Source: JALTID01 sp027004335 [NCBI: bacterium]
GTDB lineage: Bacteria; JALSQH01
Reading direction: 5' to 3'
DNA length: 10,073 nucleotides
Assembly (NCBI GenBank): GCA_027004335.1
Contig: JALTID010000126.1
Span: 1-10,073, forward strand
Positions 1-7,979 of the stretch are shown here, one piece after another. The position numbers and the translations under genes were made by a program. The number at the start of each line of letters is the position of its first letter. Position 1 is the first letter of the stretch. The notes under the pieces were generated by a model. The model saw only the letters and a list, made by a program, of their open reading frames with translations. It had not been told where the DNA came from and made no database searches.

Positions 1-584
1 TGTATTTAAGTAACTACAATCCTGCACACTTTTCAATGGTACTTCAAAAATATATGGAACTGATAAAAAGTATTAAAAAGAAGGATCTTAAAATTTCAAC
101 TGTTACATACCCGGTGGTTCTTGATGATTTTGAGGATGGAGATCTGGATATAGAGGATCTTGCAGATATTCCGGTAGGTTATCCCTCAGCGGGATGGGAT
201 GAGGCAGCTTTTATGGTTTATACCACCATCTTTGATTCTTTTAATCTGACAGGGAAGAGTGATTTTGTTTATCAATATGCCCTCCTTGCGAAAAAATACT
301 ACGGTGATAGAGGGGTAATTGCCCTCGGCATAACTAGCGCAAAGACTTATACCCCTGAAAGATTGAAGGAGGAAATCTCTGCTTCATATGCTGGGGGTAT
401 TAGAAAAATAATGATTTATTCACTGGAGGGAACCTATAAACGCACCGATTATAAATTTTCTCAATGGATGAAAGCGATCTCAGATGCCACTGCACAAATA
501 CCCCCTTCTGGTGGTCTCTTTGATATGACCCATTCCTTTCTGGAAAGTGTGGATAAGGAACTTAATGGGAAAAATGAAAAATAG
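1..584 (+). CDS. C-terminal part of an unrecognised protein, possibly TIM-barrel-like (5' end outside window)
   Basis: The reading frame is already open at base 3, with sense codons before the first internal ATG at 36, so the gene begins upstream of the window. The visible 193 residues show alternating hydrophobic strand and amphipathic helix stretches. Examples are a strand near GVIALGITSAK followed by a helix with ERLKEEISASYAGG, and then a strand KIMIYSLEG. This order resembles the last beta/alpha units of a TIM barrel such as a glycosidase-like domain, but that is inference; I recognise no family motif and no catalytic residue can be assigned. The protein ends in a charged tail and a TAG at 582-584. 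It overlaps the next gene by 20 bp, so the two are probably co-translated. The partner is a GH172-type lipoprotein, which makes a carbohydrate-related role reasonable but unproven. Confidence 0.75.
   Translation, partial: YLSNYNPAHFSMVLQKYMELIKSIKKKDLKISTVTYPVVLDDFEDGDLDIEDLADIPVGYPSAGWDEAAFMVYTTIFDSFNLTGKSDFVYQYALLAKKYYGDRGVIALGITSAKTYTPERLKEEISASYAGGIRKIMIYSLEGTYKRTDYKFSQWMKAISDATAQIPPSGGLFDMTHSFLESVDKELNGKNEK
555..559 (+). promoter_or_regulatory. Shine-Dalgarno that sets the start of the DUF2961 gene
   Basis: AAGGA lies 5 nt before the ATG at 565. The in-frame GTG at 547 has no ribosome site and would put a tryptophan and an arginine ahead of the signal peptide. The ATG at 574 is preceded only by A-rich sequence. 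The site lies inside the end of the preceding gene, in keeping with translational coupling. Confidence 0.65.
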
Positions 585-2073
585 TGGCAGAAGCCCTTTG
601 TTTCTTATTGCTTCTCTACTCATTTTTCTTTTTGTCTCTTCCTGCAATTTGAAAAATGAACCTGTAATTACTCCAACTGAATCCGATACAGATGTTATAG
701 AAATATTAAAGAATTATCCTTTCGTAGGGGACCTATATCCCTTTCAATTTTCCTCCTATGACAGGAAGGGTGGAAACATGGATGGCTTTGTTTATACCTA
801 TATTGGTAAAGAGGAGGGTGATTATATACTGGCTCAGGGTGAGGGTCCCGGATGTATTACCAGATTCTGGTTCACAACGGTAATCCCCCCAGGGGGAAAT
901 CTTTTATTTGATCTTGATGGGAAAAATATAGAGTATCCTGTTGATTATCTTTTTTCAGGGGTGTACCCTGATTTTGAGTTCCCCCTCGTGGGTGATTCTT
1001 CAGCTTCCAGCGGTGGGTGGTATTCCTACCATAATTTTTCATTTGATTCAAATTTTAAGATAGTTACTACTCATCTTTTTTCCTACTATCAGATTCAGGG
1101 TTTCAGAGGGGGAAAATGTTATTTAAAGAATTCAGAACTTCTGGTGCTTCTCCAGAGTGCAGGTATTTATCCATTTTCTAAATCTCCGGAAAATTTTAAT
1201 AACTTCTCAATACCTTCTGGTGAAAGCAGAAATATCTTAAATGTTGGTGGAGAGGGGGAATTGCTCTATCTTCTTGCAAAATTTAGCACTTCTTTTCCCT
1301 CTAAGATAACTGTGGAGATCTATTACGATGGGTTAACTGTTCCATCTGTAAAGCTTCCTCTGGATCTATTCTTTGGAATGGCACCTGCCCCTGAGTCGGG
1401 TGAAAAAGTTTATAAGAGTTCTGTGGTAAGCAACCGTGTAAGTTGTAAAAATCCTCTTTTCTGGGGGAAGAAAGGAGAAATTTATTATTTTTCCTATCCT
1501 CTTCCATTTCACAGGAATTTGAAGATATTGATTTCCAATGGTTCTTCTACTTCTTTCAATATTTCAACTTTTTCATATCTTCTGGAGACCACTATACCAA
1601 CAACTTATGGATACCTCTATGCAAATAAGATTTCCAGAGCTTCTATTAATAGTAGAAGCTTTAATTTGCTGACGCTCAAAAAGGGGCGGGGAAAAGTTGT
1701 GGGAGTGAATCTCAACTACAGAAGCTATATCCCCTCAGAAGGGTTGGAATTATTTCTTGAAGGAGATGATATTGTTTATTTAAATGGCAACTCTTCATCA
1801 TCTATTCATGGAACAGGTACCGAAGATTTTTTTAATGGAGGCTGGTACTTTAAATATGGTCCATTTACTCTCCCGACCCATGGTGAGTATTATCATTATT
1901 ACAATCCCCAAACCCACCTTGATAGGTTAGGGGCGTATAGGATTTACCTTGATGATGCTTATTTTTTTCAGAACGGGATCAAATTTCTCCTGGAACATGG
2001 TCCCCAAAACGATTTTCCAGCTGACATACGAGGGGTAGTATACTACTACCTGCTACCCGGAGAAAATCAATAA
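565..2073 (+). CDS. DUF2961 / GH172-family lipoprotein (putative furanosidase-type glycan enzyme)
   Basis: This is a 502-residue protein from the ATG at 565. A lipoprotein signal peptide ends in the lipobox V-S-S-C with lipid Cys27, so the enzyme should be tethered outside the cytoplasm. The body has DUF2961 hallmarks in order: an SSYDRKGGN-type motif near residues 63-71, GPG-x-I-x-R-F-W near 94-102, an FFG-x-A motif near 270, and the signature GTGTEDFF at 416-423 followed by GGW. The closing segment AYRIYLDDAYFF...FLLEHGPQND matches the family's C-terminal sandwich. Some DUF2961 members are established as GH172 enzymes acting on alpha-fructofuranosyl or D-arabinofuranosyl linkages, using a pair of glutamates. 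Glu420 in GTGTED and Glu395 in G-L-E-L-F are the likely equivalents here, which is inference. Substrate is unknown. It overlaps the upstream gene by 20 bp. Confidence 0.88.
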   Translation: MGKMKNSGRSPLFLIASLLIFLFVSSCNLKNEPVITPTESDTDVIEILKNYPFVGDLYPFQFSSYDRKGGNMDGFVYTYIGKEEGDYILAQGEGPGCITRFWFTTVIPPGGNLLFDLDGKNIEYPVDYLFSGVYPDFEFPLVGDSSASSGGWYSYHNFSFDSNFKIVTTHLFSYYQIQGFRGGKCYLKNSELLVLLQSAGIYPFSKSPENFNNFSIPSGESRNILNVGGEGELLYLLAKFSTSFPSKITVEIYYDGLTVPSVKLPLDLFFGMAPAPESGEKVYKSSVVSNRVSCKNPLFWGKKGEIYYFSYPLPFHRNLKILISNGSSTSFNISTFSYLLETTIPTTYGYLYANKISRASINSRSFNLLTLKKGRGKVVGVNLNYRSYIPSEGLELFLEGDDIVYLNGNSSSSIHGTGTEDFFNGGWYFKYGPFTLPTHGEYYHYYNPQTHLDRLGAYRIYLDDAYFFQNGIKFLLEHGPQNDFPADIRGVVYYYLLPGENQ

Positions 2074-3322: not shown

Positions 3323-3351
3323 TTGAGATTTATGAGAAAATAGACTAAAAG
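3323..3351 (+). promoter_or_regulatory. Weak candidate promoter for the TetR-Tam41-like operon
   Basis: TTGAGA (3323-3328), a 17-bp spacer and TAAAAG (3346-3351) each match four of six sigma70 positions. An overlapping alternative is TTGATT at 3313 with GAAAAT at 3336. The region lies between the divergent lipoprotein and regulator genes. I found no convincing inverted repeat here that could be a TetR operator. Confidence 0.25.
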
Positions 3352-3366
3352 GGTGTTTTGGTCGAG

Positions 3367-3930
3367 ATGAAAAGTGAAATAACAAGAGAGTATATATTAA
3401 GAAAGGCTTATGAACTCTTTTCCCACTTTGGTTTTTATAAAACTGCGATGGACGATATTGCAACAGAGGCCAGGGTGGGGAAGGGGACCATCTACTACTA
3501 TTTTAAAAGTAAATATGAGCTATTTGCTGAGGTCCTGCAGAGAGATTCCTTAAGGATTCTTGAGAAGGTTAAAGAGTCAATCTCCGGGGTACCTGTTTCC
3601 AGGGATAGGATTTTAAAAGTTTTTCTTTTGCATTTAAAAGAGATGAGAGATAGTGCGATTTTAAGACAGACCCTTTCAGATGACAAACTGATGGAGATCC
3701 CGGATATCCGTAAAAGCGTGGAAAAGGTGAGAGAAACTTTTTATTCTTTCTTCAGGGAAATATGCAGGGAGGATTTTGGAGGGGAAAAGACATGCCGTAT
3801 TTCCCAGATCATTTCTGATCTCATTACCATACTTGCACTCTCTCCTTCATACATTTTTAATGAAATAGGAGATGAAAAAAGCACAGAACTTTTCAGATCA
3901 ATTTTAAAGGGAGTTGCACAGAATGAATAA
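3367..3930 (+). CDS. TetR/AcrR-family transcriptional regulator
   Basis: The protein has 187 residues, a normal length for the family. Residues 1-55 are a typical TetR DNA-binding domain: a first helix (TREYILRKAYELFSHFGF), then the helix-turn-helix MDDIATEARVGKGTIYYYF at about 28-46, followed by K-S-K-Y-E-L-F. The rest is a helical ligand-binding and dimer domain that is not conserved enough to name the effector. The start is uncertain. ATG 3367 gives the cleanest N-terminus, with only GGGTG 11 nt upstream, whereas TTG 3358 has no usable ribosome site. The end overlaps the next gene by 8 bp, so the regulator and the Tam41-like protein are co-expressed. By analogy with such pairs it probably controls its own operon, perhaps in response to a lipid or acyl compound (inference). 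It is divergent from the PD40 lipoprotein gene, which it may also regulate. Confidence 0.9.
   Translation: MKSEITREYILRKAYELFSHFGFYKTAMDDIATEARVGKGTIYYYFKSKYELFAEVLQRDSLRILEKVKESISGVPVSRDRILKVFLLHLKEMRDSAILRQTLSDDKLMEIPDIRKSVEKVRETFYSFFREICREDFGGEKTCRISQIISDLITILALSPSYIFNEIGDEKSTELFRSILKGVAQNE
3907..3913 (+). promoter_or_regulatory. Shine-Dalgarno of the Tam41-like gene
   Basis: AAGGGAG lies 9 nt before ATG 3923 and inside the last codons of the TetR gene. It overlaps the position just before TTG 3914, which makes that earlier start unlikely. Confidence 0.6.
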
Positions 3931-4897
3931 GGAACTATTTGAAAATGCTGTTGCCCTTATCAGAGGAAAACTTCTCCAGCCAATTCCGGGAGAAGACATA
4001 GAACATTTTTTGAAGCTTTTTAAGAAAAAATTTGGTGATCACCTCCTTGCTGTTCTTCACTACGGTTCCTTTCTAAGTGATATAACCAGGAAAGAGGATA
4101 GTTTCAGAGATTTTTTTGTGGTGGTTGATTCTTTTCTGGAACTTAAAGGTTTTTCTCAGATGGATAAATTACTGAGTACTTTTTTACCTCCCAATCTCTA
4201 TTATTATGATGAGGTTGTGGATGGGACAAGATATGTTTGTAAATACAATGTAATAACAATTTATGATTTTAATACTTATACCAGTTTTTATCCTCCCGAT
4301 AACTACCTCCTGGGTAGATTTTCTAAGAGGATGGCTCTTCTCTATTATAGGGATGAGAAAGTAATTGACGAGATCGCCACAGGAATGGCAAGATCCGCCT
4401 TTTTCACAGGTGAGAAGTCATTTTTTACTATTGTAAGACCTGTGACTGTAGAGGAATGGATAATGAATGCCCTCTCTTTCAGTTATATGGCTGAGGAGAG
4501 AATAGAGGATTTCAGTGTGAAGAGCAGAGAGCTTTATCTTGCGGCAAAGGAGTATTACAACAAATTATACGGTGGAATTATTCTAAAGAATCTGGAAGTA
4601 GAGGGTGTAGCGAGATACGATTACGGTACAGGGTTACTCTTCCCGGCAATGAGCAGGGAAGAGTTTATTAACAGGAAAAAAGAGATAGAAGAGTACCTCA
4701 GGATTTCCAGAGTGAGGACCAGGTTAAGATGGCCCAAGATGATTCTCACTGTAGATAAATGGGTGGATCAGCTTTTGTGGAAGCTTGAAAGAGTTCATGG
4801 CATCAAGCTTGATATCTCCCCGTGGGAGAGAAAAATCATCCTTATCACAGGCTGGAGATATTATTTCATCCTGAAGAAGAAGGGAAAGGTAAAATAA
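3923..4897 (+). CDS. Tam41-like nucleotidyltransferase-fold protein (putative CDP-diacylglycerol synthase)
   Basis: The protein has 324 residues and no signal peptide or membrane span. It shows the Tam41 (PF09139-type) pattern in order. First is H-Y-G-S at 46-49 followed by D-F-F-V-V-V-D at 63-69, the nucleotidyltransferase GS...D motif. Next comes L-P-P-N-L-Y-Y-Y at about 88-95, then KYNVITIYDF at 107-116, and then N-Y-L-L-G-R-F-S-K-R-M near 127-137. In mitochondrial Tam41 the matching parts read YGSGVF...DFIFAV, VYFN, KYGVIS and LYLAGR-x-QKPV. Tam41 makes CDP-diacylglycerol from phosphatidic acid and CTP. It is a peripheral membrane enzyme unrelated to CdsA. Assigning that reaction here is inference from the motifs. 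It is coupled to a TetR regulator, suggesting regulated phospholipid synthesis. An alternative is a nucleotidyltransferase using another substrate. Confidence 0.7.
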   Translation: MNKELFENAVALIRGKLLQPIPGEDIEHFLKLFKKKFGDHLLAVLHYGSFLSDITRKEDSFRDFFVVVDSFLELKGFSQMDKLLSTFLPPNLYYYDEVVDGTRYVCKYNVITIYDFNTYTSFYPPDNYLLGRFSKRMALLYYRDEKVIDEIATGMARSAFFTGEKSFFTIVRPVTVEEWIMNALSFSYMAEERIEDFSVKSRELYLAAKEYYNKLYGGIILKNLEVEGVARYDYGTGLLFPAMSREEFINRKKEIEEYLRISRVRTRLRWPKMILTVDKWVDQLLWKLERVHGIKLDISPWERKIILITGWRYYFILKKKGKVK

Positions 4898-4949: not shown

Positions 4950-5504
4950 ATGGCCGAAAGAAAATCCACACTGGGAAGAGATCTTTTAATAATTTTAGGA
5001 GCGGGATTCATCGTTCTGGTGTTTCTCTTTGCGCAGAGGAAAAATTTTCACAGGATGAAATTGGGGCGGGATGCTCCTGGATTTACTCTCCCGGGAATAA
5101 GTGGTAAGGATTATTCCTTGAAGGATTTTAGAGGAAAAGTTGTGCTGCTGAATTTCTGGGCTACCTGGTGTCCTCCCTGTAAAGCTGAGATCCCATCCCT
5201 GATAAGGCTTAATCATATGTTTTCAAATGAAGGTCTTGTGATTCTTGGCATAAGCGAAGATAATAGAGGTGCAGATGTTGTTGTTCCCTTTGCAAAATCA
5301 TACGGGATGGATTTTGCTGTCCTACTTGATCCATCAAGAGAGGTAGGGAATCTTTACTCCATTGGAGGAGTTCCAGAAACATTTTTAGTAGGTAAGGATG
5401 GAAAAATTAAGTATAAATTTGTAGGTCCCAAGAACTGGGATTCTCCTGAGATGGTCAAATTTATTACCGTATACTTAAAGGAAAAGGAGGAGAAAGATAG
5501 ATGA
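4950..5504 (+). CDS. Membrane-anchored TlpA/ResA-like thiol-disulfide oxidoreductase
   Basis: The protein has 184 residues. An uncleaved N-terminal membrane segment at about 11-28, preceded by Arg/Lys, anchors it with the thioredoxin domain outside the cytoplasm. The AhpC/TSA-like domain starts at about 38 (G-R-D-A-P-G-F-T-L). The active site is W-C-P-P-C with Cys74 and Cys77, followed by Glu80, the glutamate conserved in ResA/TlpA after C-x-x-C-x-x-E. The cis-proline loop is G-G-V-P-E-T-F with Pro142. GVPETF and the Glu fit reductants of the ResA/CcmG type, which reduce apocytochrome c or other exported thiols, but no cytochrome maturation gene is visible. ATG 4950 has only a poor GAAGA just upstream, so it may be read from a very short leader. 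Its end overlaps the next gene by 4 bp (ATGA). Confidence 0.9.
   Translation: MAERKSTLGRDLLIILGAGFIVLVFLFAQRKNFHRMKLGRDAPGFTLPGISGKDYSLKDFRGKVVLLNFWATWCPPCKAEIPSLIRLNHMFSNEGLVILGISEDNRGADVVVPFAKSYGMDFAVLLDPSREVGNLYSIGGVPETFLVGKDGKIKYKFVGPKNWDSPEMVKFITVYLKEKEEKDR
5484..5490 (+). promoter_or_regulatory. Strong Shine-Dalgarno of the second TlpA-like gene
   Basis: AAGGAGG, 10 nt before ATG 5501, is encoded within the terminal Lys/Glu codons of the preceding gene. Confidence 0.7.
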
Positions 5505-6016
5505 AAAAAATAGTATTTCTACTTTTTCTTTTTTTCATTTCCACTTCTCTTGGTGGGACAGGATTTGTAGCAGTTGGGAGCAAAGTTCCTGATGTTAAGG
5601 TAGTGAGAGCAGATGGGAAGTATGTCTCCCTTACCTCCTTTAAAGGAAAAGTTGTTTTAATTAATTTCTGGGCAACATGGTGCCCTCCATGTGTGAGAGA
5701 GATGCCCGAACTAAATAAGCTTTACAAAAAATTTCATAAAAGGGGTCTGGAGGTTCTTCCCATTGCAAATCCAAGAGATTCTGTGGAAAGGGTAAAGTCA
5801 TTTTTCAAATATGTGGGTATAAGGTTCCCATATTATGTGGATGAGAGTTTTACCGTTACAAGATTATTTGGCGTAAGAGCTCTTCCCACCACCTTTATCG
5901 TGGACAGAAAAGGAGTGGTAAGGCAGATTTTCATAGGGATGAGACCGTGGATGTCTCCACAGTTCATAGATTACTTTAAGTCATTATTAAAAGAAAAAAC
6001 AGGGAGGAAAAAATGA
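5501..6016 (+). CDS. Exported TlpA-like thioredoxin-fold protein
   Basis: The protein has 171 residues. The N-terminus MKKIVFLLFLFFISTSLGG is a signal peptide or anchor without a lipobox cysteine, so a soluble periplasmic protein is likely. The domain begins at about 26 (G-S-K-V-P-D). The active site is W-C-P-P-C with Cys61 and Cys64, followed by Glu67, and the cis-Pro is Pro129 in R-A-L-P-T-T-F. It shares the GKVVL-(L/I)-NFWATWCPPC core with the gene before it, but the two have diverged widely elsewhere, so this is a paralogue rather than a recent duplication. The cis-Pro neighbour residues differ (VPET against LPTT), which suggests different redox partners. It is coupled on both sides by ATGA overlaps. 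The partner protein is not identifiable from this window. Confidence 0.9.
   Translation: MKKIVFLLFLFFISTSLGGTGFVAVGSKVPDVKVVRADGKYVSLTSFKGKVVLINFWATWCPPCVREMPELNKLYKKFHKRGLEVLPIANPRDSVERVKSFFKYVGIRFPYYVDESFTVTRLFGVRALPTTFIVDRKGVVRQIFIGMRPWMSPQFIDYFKSLLKEKTGRKK
6001..6007 (+). promoter_or_regulatory. Shine-Dalgarno of the DsbA-like lipoprotein gene
   Basis: AGGGAGG, 5 nt before ATG 6013, lies inside the last Gly-Arg codons of the preceding gene. Confidence 0.65.
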
Positions 6017-6735
6017 GAGGATTAAGGTTATTTCCTGCTATCTTAATAGTTCTTGCTCTGTTTATTTCTTCTTGTCACAAGAAAAAAGAGGCTAAAAAGC
6101 CTCCTTTAACACCTCCTGTAGCTCAAAAAGTCCAAAATATGCAGCAACGACCCAGACAAACTTCCAGGCCTGCAAATGTAAAAACGGTGAGAATTTCTGA
6201 CAAGTTTATCCTTGGTGATCCTTCTTCTAAATTGGTAATGGTGGAATTTACCGATTTTCAATGCCCCTTCTGCAGAAGGTTTCACGCTCAAACTTTTCCT
6301 CTTTTAAAGAAGGAGTATATTGATACTGGAAAACTTAAATGGGTTACCATCCCATTCCCCTTGAGATTCCATCAGTATGCCTTTCCTGCTGCAAGAGGTT
6401 TTATCTGTGCAGGAAAAACTGGAGGGGAAAAGGCGTACTGGCAGTATTATATGAAAATTTTCAATGTTGAAAGATTAAATCCCTACTCTCCTGTTGAGGT
6501 TGCAACGGAAATAGGTCTTAACAGGGGAAAATTCTCCAGTTGTATGGATAGCGAAGAGGTTAGAAACGAACTTGCAGGTTTACTGAGTTTTGCCTCTGTT
6601 ATTGGTGTACGAGGCACTCCCACCTTTATACTTGGTAAGGACAATGGTGACGGGACAATGACAGGAGAAATGGTTGTTGGAGCGCAACCGTATGAGATTT
6701 TTAAGGATAAAATAGACGCTTTATTATCAAAATGA
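6013..6735 (+). CDS. DsbA-like thiol:disulfide lipoprotein
   Basis: The protein has 240 residues. The signal peptide ends in lipobox F-I-S-S-C, giving lipid Cys21, followed by a Lys-, Pro- and Gln-rich linker to about residue 58. The DSBA/Thioredoxin_4 domain then begins (I-L-G-D-P). The active site F-x-C-P-F-C uses Cys84 and Cys87. The cis-Pro loop is R-G-T-P-T-F with Pro203. Two further cysteines, Cys132 and Cys177, sit in positions usual for this subfamily and may form a second, structural disulfide. The family oxidises or isomerises disulfides in exported proteins. A CPFC site with two reducing-type TlpA proteins next to it could mean an electron relay or isomerase pathway (inference). 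No DsbB, DsbD or VKOR partner is visible. Its TGA stop overlaps the TruD start. Confidence 0.9.
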   Translation: MRGLRLFPAILIVLALFISSCHKKKEAKKPPLTPPVAQKVQNMQQRPRQTSRPANVKTVRISDKFILGDPSSKLVMVEFTDFQCPFCRRFHAQTFPLLKKEYIDTGKLKWVTIPFPLRFHQYAFPAARGFICAGKTGGEKAYWQYYMKIFNVERLNPYSPVEVATEIGLNRGKFSSCMDSEEVRNELAGLLSFASVIGVRGTPTFILGKDNGDGTMTGEMVVGAQPYEIFKDKIDALLSK

Positions 6736-7979
6736 GAGTAAAATTTGTACCTTCCGATTTTTTTGTTGAGGAGGTAATTAGTCTCCCCATTGATGAGGAA
6801 GCTGTGTGGCCCTATGCTCTTTTTAAGCTTGAAAAGGTGGGCTACAATACCTGGTATATACTCAAGGCGATTTCAGACAGGTATTTCCATTTTGAAGAAG
6901 ATCCAAGATCGCTCTTTCAGATAGGAGGGCTAAAAGATAAAAATGCGTATACAGTTCAGTATGTTACCCTTCCCCTTAATTTTTTGAGAGGTAACCCCAA
7001 GAGGATCGAGTCCCTTGCCCGGTATCCATTTGAGTTCAGTAAGCCACGTAGAATGGCGAGATTTACCTTTCTTGGGTATGTGCCCTATCCCATGGGTGCA
7101 GACAAGATACTGGGCAATAAATTCGTTCTTATTCTTAGAGATCTTGATGAGTTCGCAATTAGAAGTCTTCCAGAATTATTGGAGAAGAAAGAAAGATCAG
7201 GTTTCCCCAATTACTATGATTCCCAGAGATTTTACCATGTAAGAAGTCGCAGTGATTTTGTGGCAAGACTCATCCTCAGAAGAGAGTTTTTAGGTGCTTT
7301 GAAACTTTTTTTTACTAATTATCAGGAGGATATAGGAGAGAGAAACAGGGTAAATGAAGAGATCGTAAAAAAATACTGGAAAGACTGGGATATGCTGAAG
7401 GATTATTTTAATGGCTTACTCTCTGAGCTTGTTTTAGATGTTCTGAGTGAAAATAACAAACCAGAATATGCCCTGGGAATGATCAGTGACAGGGTGATGG
7501 ATTTCCACTTTATGAAGTATCAGGCTTATGTATGGAATAAGTTTCTGAACAAGGTATTTCGGATTATTGGGTTAAGAGGTAAGAGCTCTCAAGTTGTTGA
7601 TATTAACTTGCTTTTCCCTGAATATTTTCCCTTTCCAGATTTAAAGCTTAATCTTCTTTACAGGAAATGGGCAGAGGAGCCTGGTGATATAGAAGAGCTT
7701 AAGGAAATTGTGCTGAGAGCAAAGTCCGAAGTCCTCAGGGAAGAAGGGATCGAAAACGCATCTTTCAATATTAAAAAGTTCAGGACTACATATTTCAAAA
7801 AATTTAGCAGAGATGTATGGGTAAGACCTTCAATTTTATCGTATGGTGAAGCCGCATTTGATGAAGCTTTCCCTGGAAAATACAGGTACACTTTCTCCTT
7901 TACACTTCCTTCAGGCACCTACGCAACAATTTTCACGAAAGCTATATTTTTAGAGTTGGAAAGAAAAAAGGGGGGATAA
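6732..7979 (+). CDS. truD: tRNA pseudouridine synthase D, divergent member
   Basis: The protein has 415 residues, longer than E. coli TruD (about 350). It converts a uridine in tRNA (U13 in E. coli) to pseudouridine. Visible family marks are the N-terminal D-F-F-V-E-E-V at 9-15; GGLKDKNAYT at 65-74 with the catalytic Asp69; GNKFVLILRDL at 128-138; and the C-terminal LPSGTYAT at 392-399. The conserved NYFGxQRFG block reads N-Y-Y-D-S-Q-R-F-Y at 160-168, so both glycines are replaced (Asp163 and Tyr168). The insertion domain between about 200 and 370 is poorly conserved. The start is fixed by the ATGA overlap with the DsbA-like gene. No Shine-Dalgarno lies within the usual distance. The TAA stop lies in the loop of the terminator of the convergent gene. 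Synthase function is likely, but the target uridine may differ. Confidence 0.88.
   Translation: MRVKFVPSDFFVEEVISLPIDEEAVWPYALFKLEKVGYNTWYILKAISDRYFHFEEDPRSLFQIGGLKDKNAYTVQYVTLPLNFLRGNPKRIESLARYPFEFSKPRRMARFTFLGYVPYPMGADKILGNKFVLILRDLDEFAIRSLPELLEKKERSGFPNYYDSQRFYHVRSRSDFVARLILRREFLGALKLFFTNYQEDIGERNRVNEEIVKKYWKDWDMLKDYFNGLLSELVLDVLSENNKPEYALGMISDRVMDFHFMKYQAYVWNKFLNKVFRIIGLRGKSSQVVDINLLFPEYFPFPDLKLNLLYRKWAEEPGDIEELKEIVLRAKSEVLREEGIENASFNIKKFRTTYFKKFSRDVWVRPSILSYGEAAFDEAFPGKYRYTFSFTLPSGTYATIFTKAIFLELERKKGG

What the first reader, a model, noticed from the sequence alone, without database searches (positions are those of the whole stretch)
3367..4897. A Tam41-type CDP-diacylglycerol synthase candidate in a bacterium, coupled to its own TetR regulator
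The 324-residue protein carries YGS...DFFVVVD, KYNVITIYDF and a LLGRFSKR block that line up by eye with the mitochondrial Tam41 family. That family makes CDP-diacylglycerol without the membrane enzyme CdsA. It overlaps a TetR gene by 8 bp, which suggests a dedicated, ligand-responsive lipid circuit. If right, this would be a bacterial Tam41-like lipid enzyme under its own control. The motifs are seen, the Tam41 reaction is established knowledge, and the function and regulation are inference.
Basis: partly seen in the sequence, partly recalled or inferred. Interest (0 to 1): 0.62.

Follow-up and report, generated by a model that had tools for sequence, protein, structure and literature searches.

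The report
Bacterial Tam41-like lipid cytidylyltransferase with TetR
This bacterial gene belongs to a little-noticed family related to the mitochondrial enzyme Tam41, probably activates a membrane lipid phosphate with CTP, and shares an operon with a TetR-type regulator; the same family appears to include CpgC, a bacterial sphingolipid enzyme whose reaction is still unknown.

Summary
In detail: a TetR gene (3367-3930) overlaps by 8 bp a 324-residue nucleotidyltransferase gene (3923-4897). The protein alone gives no PF09139 hit, but it belongs to a divergent bacterial family, found in 20 of 386 genomes, whose profile finds the solved Tam41 structures 6ig2 (S. pombe) and 7ecd (recalled as the Firmicutes Tam41) at E 1e-11 and 3e-11. 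PF09139 matches 10 of 290 genomes, 8 above cut-off, all at loci this profile had found. Eight core residues are invariant in 28 of 28 sequences, two Tam41s included. Lipid genes stand nearby in 4 of 17 genome loci and in the 6 plasmid loci viewed (of 17 records). One clade has the gene order of Caulobacter cpgA-cpgB-cpgC-spt, so it looks like CpgC. The window protein lies outside that clade and outside Tam41 proper, and its genome also has CdsA, so its substrate, phosphatidate or another lipid phosphate, is open. Two sister-family genomes lack detectable CdsA, not a significant excess. Bacterial Tam41 is already published; new here are the sister family and its CpgC link. The TetR pairing was seen only here and in the sister genus.

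The parts
3343..3363 (+). candidate TetR operator, near-palindrome GACTAAAA-N5-TTTTGGTC, ending 3 bp before the tetR start codon, inside a 26-bp block (3339-3364) with 23 of 26 bases identical in the sister genus
   Evidence: the dyad alone is not significant against shuffles (0.11)
3367..3930 (+). TetR/AcrR-type regulator, 187 aa
   Evidence: PF00440 E 5.1e-17; best PDB relative 8sv6 over residues 9-94, E 9e-12
3906..3913 (+). probable ribosome-binding site AAAGGGAG for the NTase gene, within tetR (translational coupling)
   Evidence: read directly
3923..4897 (+). Tam41-like nucleotidyltransferase, 324 aa, proposed lipid-phosphate cytidylyltransferase
4061..4069 (+). YGS, residues 47-49, nucleotidyltransferase signature, invariant in 28 of 28
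4109..4111 (+). D63 of the DFFVVVD block, invariant in 28 of 28; the position two residues on is F, so no DxD
   Evidence: a paper states that Tam41 keeps only one of the three acids of the fold (PMC11646218 passage)
4241..4243 (+). K107 of the KYxV block, invariant in 28 of 28
4313..4318 (+). G131-R132 of the GRFSKR block; R132 invariant in 28 of 28
4484..4501 (+). Y188 to R193 (SYxx[ED]xR block); Y188 and R193 invariant in 28 of 28, position 191 always E or D
4655..4894 (+). basic C-terminal 80 residues (22 K+R, 10 D+E), possible membrane-binding part
4950..7979 (+). co-directional neighbours: TlpA/ResA-like 4950-5504 and 5501-6016, DsbA-like 6013-6735, truD 6732-7979; same order in the sister genus

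Best explanation
The gene encodes a probably peripheral-membrane, Mg-CTP-dependent nucleotidyltransferase of a bacterial sister family of Tam41. Shown here: homology of the family to Tam41, conservation of the core residues, the lipid gene context of several relatives, and the gene pair with TetR. Inferred: it transfers CMP from CTP to the phosphomonoester of a membrane lipid, giving a CDP-lipid and pyrophosphate. The substrate is phosphatidate (product CDP-diacylglycerol) where CdsA is lacking, probably ceramide-1-phosphate in the CpgC-like clade, and undecided here. TetR most likely represses its own operon from the 3343-3363 site. The enzyme would then be a second, conditional liponucleotide supply beside CdsA.
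For: The family profile finds S. pombe Tam41 6ig2 at E 3e-7 from 6 rows and 1e-11 from 17 rows, with 7ecd at 3.3e-11; the next PDB hit, a nucleotidyltransferase domain, is at 3.7e-4. PF09139 matches 15 of 19 members at E<=1 and 10 of 290 genomes, 8 over its cut-off. A profile of the 17 other members finds the window protein at 240 bits. Eight core residues are invariant in 28 of 28. Neighbours: lipid kinase DAGK_cat in G015, G225 and G306; acyltransferase in G015 and G194; CDP-alcohol transferase in G194 and G225; desaturase in G225, that is 4 of 17 loci. Plasmid relatives stand directly after a lipid kinase in 5 of 6 viewed and three genes before one in the sixth, and beside serine palmitoyltransferase in Roseomonas haemaphysalidis. 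CdsA is not detected in 3 of 19 carriers, which have 2, 6 and 4 CDP-alcohol transferases needing a CDP-lipid. TetR pair and upstream block are kept in the sister genus; in either genome this is the only site with at most 1 mismatch.
Against: The window protein alone has no PF09139 match, and PF09139 rang in 0 of 14 control genomes. The structure test failed (AF2 pLDDT 39). No recognised lipid gene lies in the 10-kb window. In 11 of 17 genome loci no lipid kinase, acyltransferase, CDP-alcohol transferase, SDR or BacA turned up among the neighbours scanned; a 12th (G181) was not scanned and a 13th (G021) has only SDR and BacA. CdsA is present in this genome and in 16 of 19 carriers. Absence of CdsA is 3 of 14 good carrier genomes against 16 of 319 others (p 0.038), but one of the three, G104, carries a protein that groups with Tam41 proper; without it, 2 of 13 against 17 of 320, p 0.17, not significant. 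The dyad alone is no better than shuffles (window 0.11, L001 0.95), and the site pattern came from the sites themselves. Plasmid loci viewed include three from one genus, so are not independent.
Confidence: 0.68

Rival explanations
1. It is functionally an ordinary CDP-diacylglycerol synthase, redundant with CdsA, with phosphatidate as substrate.
For: Tam41 and the published bacterial Tam41 use phosphatidate (passages of PMC7018664 and PMC11646218); carriers G034 and G179 of the sister family, and G104 of Tam41 proper, lack detectable CdsA; acyltransferase and CDP-alcohol transferase flank the gene in G194.
Against: CdsA is present in this genome; lipid kinases are the most frequent lipid neighbour; the CpgC-like clade belongs to a sphingolipid-type locus; the CdsA-absence excess is not significant within the sister family.
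Confidence: 0.37
2. It activates another lipid phosphate (ceramide-1-phosphate-like, ether-lipid or polyprenyl phosphate), as suggested in print for CpgC.
For: Homology with the CpgC-like clade (window to Pseudomonas plasmid pPNP1, tblastn 3e-9; family profile 217 bits with, 174 bits without the G225 row); kinase-NTase gene pairs in G015, G306 and five plasmids, and a kinase two genes up in G225; CdsA co-occurrence in 16 of 19.
Against: The window protein is outside the CpgC-like clade and no kinase or sphingolipid gene is in the window; the rest of the genome was not searched for them.
Confidence: 0.36
3. It is a non-lipid nucleotidyltransferase (MNT-like, antibiotic adenylyltransferase or toxin/antitoxin type) that only shares the fold.
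For: About 50 positions near the start of the profile also hit 9xbd at E 3.7e-4; Polbeta hits 2 of 19 members, best 0.058; most genome loci viewed lack lipid neighbours.
Against: Tam41 hits are about seven orders stronger and span about 200 profile positions, well past the NTase motif; the core block is DFF, not DxD.
Confidence: 0.1
4. TetR does not control this gene specifically; the overlap is only operon packing with the downstream redox genes and truD.
For: In the window the downstream genes overlap one another by 4 bp each; the gene just upstream is no TetR in 16 of 17 other loci.
Against: TetR-NTase order is kept in the sister genus together with a block of 23 of 26 identical bases before tetR, while DNA further up is much less alike; gaps of 52 bp (window) and 197 bp (L001) follow the NTase gene, room for another promoter.
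Confidence: 0.3

Closest known systems
Tam41 / TAMM41 (PF09139; S. pombe structures 6ig2, 6ig4)
   Same: YGS, Asp block, KYxV, GR, SYxx[ED]xR blocks in the same order; basic C-terminal part.
   Different: Window protein scores nothing against PF09139 alone; separate group in the tree (97/97); the profile match to 6ig2 ends near position 218 of 316, so the family's conserved C-terminal block (RWPK, KxER, GW) is not matched; bacterial gene pair with TetR.
Bacterial Tam41 from a Firmicutes bacterium (FbTam41, Kimura et al. 2022; PDB 7ecd)
   Same: Bacterial, same superfamily, published CDP-DAG activity (seen only through passages of PMC11646218).
   Different: Groups with S. pombe Tam41, not with the 25 rows that hold the window protein. 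That 7ecd is FbTam41 is recalled; the tool names it only phosphatidate cytidylyltransferase.
CpgC (CC_1161/CCNA_01219) of Caulobacter crescentus
   Same: Likely same broad family: relatives on two Roseomonas plasmids stand in the order CDP-alcohol transferase, lipid kinase, this protein, PLP enzyme (serine palmitoyltransferase where tested), ACP, like CC_1159 to CC_1163. A paper notes that CC_1161 carries a CDP-DAG-synthase InterPro domain and might form an NDP-activated ceramide (PMC11324152 passage).
   Different: The CpgC-like clade excludes the window protein; identity to a plasmid member about 23%; the Caulobacter sequence itself was not compared.
CdsA (PF01148)
   Same: Same proposed reaction type.
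   Different: Integral membrane protein of another family; this genome has one elsewhere.
CpgD / IMPCT-type cytidylyltransferases
   Same: CTP-dependent, same lipid pathway in Caulobacter.
   Different: Paper places CpgD with COG1213/IMPCT enzymes, no mention of Tam41 (PMC12275187 passages).

Membership tests
Tam41 (PF09139) | Match of the protein itself to PF09139 | tested here: not met
   No hit up to E 10, none in own genome at 1e-3; the same model hits relatives in 10 of 290 genomes
Tam41 (PF09139) | Homology of its family to Tam41 | tested here: met
Tam41 (PF09139) | YGS, core Asp, Lys of KYxV, Arg of GR, SYxx[ED]xR | tested here: met
   Y47, G48, S49, D63, K107, R132, Y188, R193 in 28 of 28
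Tam41 (PF09139) | Falls within the group of S. pombe and Firmicutes Tam41 | tested here: not met
   (97/97 split); partial Tam41 chains only
Tam41 (PF09139) | NTase plus winged-helix fold | tested here: inconclusive
   AF2 from 2 rows, pLDDT 39
Tam41 (PF09139) | Basic C-terminal membrane-binding part | tested here: inconclusive
   net +12 in the last 80 residues, no structure
Tam41 (PF09139) | CTP + phosphatidate to CDP-DAG | not testable with these tools
   needs assay
CpgC | Homology to CpgC-like proteins | tested here: met
   window to plasmid protein 3e-9 over 289 residues; family profile 115-217 bits for six plasmid proteins, 91-174 bits with L044 and L045 left out; the Caulobacter protein itself not compared
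CpgC | Clade and locus with lipid kinase and serine palmitoyltransferase | tested here: not met
   window outside the 7-row clade; no such gene in the window
CpgC | Activation of ceramide-1-phosphate | not testable with these tools
   mechanism called unidentified in the papers seen
TetR | TetR_N DNA-binding domain | tested here: met
   PF00440 61.8 bits
TetR | Autoregulatory palindromic operator | tested here: inconclusive
CdsA (PF01148) | Match to PF01148 | tested here: not met
   not among the Pfam hits up to E 10

The most novel reading that the evidence does not exclude
A bacterial sister family of mitochondrial Tam41 is a general class of lipid-phosphate cytidylyltransferases. CpgC is its sphingolipid branch, making CDP-ceramide from ceramide-1-phosphate. 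Other branches replace CdsA. The window branch is a TetR-controlled second liponucleotide synthase, possibly for a lipid other than phosphatidate.
Probability: 0.35. Interest if true: 0.75.

Novelty: new variant of a known kind. Interest (0 to 1): 0.52.

Why it matters
Recent papers leave the step from ceramide-1-phosphate to ceramide phosphoglycerate in Caulobacter as an unidentified mechanism of CpgC. Tying CpgC-like proteins to Tam41 by sequence, gene order and shared core residues turns that into one assay: CTP plus ceramide-1-phosphate. It also gives candidates for CDP-lipid synthesis in bacteria with no detectable CdsA, and may bear on where mitochondrial Tam41 came from.

Tried and rejected
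CpgD as a Tam41 relative: rejected, the paper places it with IMPCT/COG1213 enzymes. Viral relatives: none confirmed. Dyad as a stand-alone signal: not significant. A TetR regulon: matches up to 2 mismatches are no commoner than the control pattern, 7 against 22 in G000 and 11 against 21 in G001. G015's phylum held only itself. The L045 row might have pulled the profile towards Tam41, so it was left out with L044: E went from 2.4e-15 to 1e-11. G041 was dropped as a carrier before the CdsA counts because its only match was a 60-residue fragment. CdsA absence as strong support: withdrawn, since p rises from 0.038 to 0.17 when G104, whose protein groups with Tam41 proper, is not counted as a carrier; for this the first rival's odds were lowered from 0.40 to 0.37. 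In one search the G417 row was a wrong-frame ORF; that tree is discarded and one search used. One search listed 100 neighbour references; 75 of these plus one set in by hand (L043:7217-7969) were scanned, whose list shows only the 25 commonest of 103 families; all six of L036 (G181) were left out. Of 17 plasmid records, 6 were viewed.

Full report
What is there. A TetR-type gene (3367-3930) overlaps a 324-codon gene (3923-4897) by 8 bp; AAAGGGAG lies 9 nt before the second ATG. The TetR has a clear PF00440 domain (E 5.1e-17). The 324-aa protein has no NCBIfam match and only a sub-cut-off coiled-coil hit in Pfam; PF09139 does not appear even at E 10. Four further genes follow on the same strand: two TlpA/ResA-like proteins, a DsbA-like protein and truD. 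The order TetR-NTase-TlpA-TlpA-DsbA-truD is the same in the only near relative found, L001 (evidently G001:C108), with 66% identity for the NTase protein.

Family. A single-sequence search found the protein in 6 of 59 genomes, the window's own included. A profile of six rows found it in 20 of 386 genomes; one of these, G041, is only a 60-residue fragment. It is patchy, but present in 8 of 9 genomes of the phylum of G306. In the phylum of G194 it was matched in 5 of 47 genomes, two of them (G391, G394) by short weak fragments and a third (G418) in two pieces.

Link to Tam41. The six-row profile finds S. pombe Tam41 in the PDB at E 3e-7. With 19 rows E is 2.4e-15 for 6ig2 and 1.2e-14 for 7ecd. 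Without the two rows least like the window, one of which (L045) is the nearest to Tam41, E is still 1e-11 and 3.3e-11, against 3.7e-4 for the next PDB entry. In the other direction PF09139 hits 3 of 6 members, 15 of 19 members at E<=1 and 10 of 290 genomes at 1e-3, 8 of them above the curated cut-off; it rings in 0 of 14 control genomes. All ten places are loci that the family profile had found. The window's own protein is not among the hits; it is tied to them by a leave-out profile of the other 17 rows at 240 bits. In an alignment of 28 sequences, Y47, G48, S49, D63, K107, R132, Y188 and R193 are invariant, the two Tam41 parts included, and position 191 is always E or D. The core block is DFF rather than DxD; a paper states that Tam41 keeps only one of the three acids of the NTase fold (PMC11646218, passages). 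The last 80 residues are basic (22 K+R, 10 D+E); a review describes a C-terminal membrane-binding domain and a positively charged amphipathic helix in S. pombe Tam41 (PMC7018664, passages). No usable structure model could be made.

Placement. In the tree (28 rows) S. pombe Tam41, 7ecd and L045 (G104) form one group (97/97), apart from 25 rows that include the window. Within these, a clade of seven (100/99) holds G225 and six plasmid proteins. The window and L001 form their own long branch, whose position among the others is unresolved. 7ecd is listed by the tool only as phosphatidate cytidylyltransferase; that it is the Firmicutes Tam41 of Kimura et al. 2022 is recalled, and that paper was seen only as cited. 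The citing paper says that Tam41 homologues are known from Firmicutes and Proteobacteria, so some members of the present family may already be counted there.

Context of relatives. Of 17 genome loci read with flanks, four have lipid-metabolic neighbours confirmed by Pfam: G015 (lipid kinase, epimerase, acyltransferase), G306 (lipid kinase, short-chain dehydrogenase), G194 (acyltransferase on one side, CDP-alcohol transferase on the other) and G225 (CDP-alcohol transferase, lipid kinase, desaturase, then the gene). G021 has a short-chain dehydrogenase and BacA beside it. Eleven others show no such neighbour among those scanned and G181 was not scanned; over 76 neighbours the tally gives 3 lipid kinases, 2 acyltransferases and 2 CDP-alcohol transferases. 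On plasmids, 3 records match the window protein directly and 17 match the G225 protein. In the six viewed, the relative is called hypothetical protein each time. It stands directly after a lipid kinase in five; in the sixth, Diaphorobacter, it follows a CDP-alcohol transferase and the kinase is the third gene downstream. Three of the six are Roseomonas, so they are not independent.

CpgC. In Roseomonas haemaphysalidis and R. marmotae the order is CDP-alcohol transferase, lipid kinase, this protein, PLP enzyme, acyl carrier protein; the R. haemaphysalidis PLP enzyme scores 625 bits against a serine palmitoyltransferase model, cut-off 500. This matches CC_1159 (cpgA), CC_1160 (cpgB, ceramide kinase), CC_1161 (cpgC), CC_1162 (spt) of Caulobacter (PMC11324152, passages); that CC_1163 is the acyl carrier protein is recalled. 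The same paper remarks that CC_1161 carries an InterPro domain of CDP-DAG synthases and might form an NDP-activated ceramide. Later papers still call its mechanism unidentified (PMC12275187 and PMC13228409, passages). The word Tam41 occurs in none of these three papers, and among the 15 papers listed of 1,027 none holds both Tam41 and CpgC. The five plasmid members scanned do not match PF09139 at E<=1 (R. gilardii was not scanned). The family profile finds all six plasmid proteins at 115-217 bits, or 91-174 bits with L044 and L045 left out of it. The Caulobacter protein itself was not compared.

CdsA. The window's genome has one CdsA (E 4.6e-65). Among 19 carriers tested (20 less G041), 16 have CdsA; G034, G104 and G179, 93-97% complete, have none detectable but have 2, 6 and 4 CDP-alcohol transferases. 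In the wider set 314 of 333 good genomes have CdsA. Absence is thus 3 of 14 good carriers against 16 of 319 others, p 0.038; but G104's protein groups with Tam41 proper, and with it set among the others the figures are 2 of 13 against 17 of 320, p 0.17. So within the sister family this is only a lead: genomes are not independent, and a divergent CdsA could be missed.

Regulation. A near-palindrome, GACTAAAAgggtgTTTTGGTC, lies at 3343-3363, ending 3 bp before the tetR start. L001 has it with one changed arm base, just after a TATAAT; a 26-bp block is 23 of 26 identical while DNA further up is much less alike. Shuffled upstream DNA reaches an equally good best dyad in 11% (window) and 95% (L001) of cases, so the evidence is the conservation, not the symmetry. 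In both whole genomes the only site with at most one mismatch is this one, but the pattern came from these sites. The gene just upstream is no TetR in 16 of 17 other genome loci (G181 not tested), and none is annotated in the six plasmid stretches. The ligand is unknown; likeness to fatty-acid regulators (FadR, FasR) is weak, 46-49 bits against cut-offs of 200-330, and no stronger than to AcrR.

Conclusion. It should not be filed as PF09139 Tam41, and 'first in a bacterium' would be wrong. The best account is a lipid-phosphate cytidylyltransferase of a bacterial sister family, substrate open, most likely a TetR-controlled second liponucleotide supply. The wider point, a likely shared ancestry and chemistry of CpgC and Tam41, is the more interesting and is directly testable.

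Noticed in passing
L083 (Pseudomonas sp. JS425 pPNP1) and L084 (Diaphorobacter sp. JS3051 pDCB2): Lipid islands with LptF/LptG copies, lipid kinase, CDP-alcohol transferase and the CpgC-like gene lie on plasmids, with an IS5 element or mercury genes nearby: possibly mobile sphingolipid-type loci.
   Followed up: partly
G034, G104, G179: Bacterial genomes 93-97% complete with CDP-alcohol transferases but no detectable CdsA; each carries a Tam41-related protein.
   Followed up: partly
L089 8221-10725 (G001): Sister genome has a fused MobA-type NTP transferase/CDP-alcohol transferase beside myo-inositol-1-phosphate synthase, as in di-myo-inositol phosphate makers (recalled).
   Followed up: partly
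L045 9-4172 and L089 4070-8170: BadF/DUF2229 proteins of about 1,370-1,390 aa stand beside the Tam41-like gene of G104 and beside the inositol genes of G001.
   Followed up: partly
window 36-2073: A secreted-looking protein (547-2073) with a DUF2961 domain (E 2.4e-41), overlapped by a preceding ORF (36-584) without any Pfam match.
   Followed up: no
window 4950-6735: Three consecutive thioredoxin-fold genes (two TlpA/ResA-like, one DsbA-like) next to truD, conserved in the sister genus.
   Followed up: partly
L041, L042 (G151, G289): The Tam41-like gene follows ruvB in both genomes of this family that were found.
   Followed up: partly
L033 9574-10515 (G168): By eye a patatin-like protein lies within three genes of the Tam41-like gene; not counted as a lipid neighbour.
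   Followed up: no
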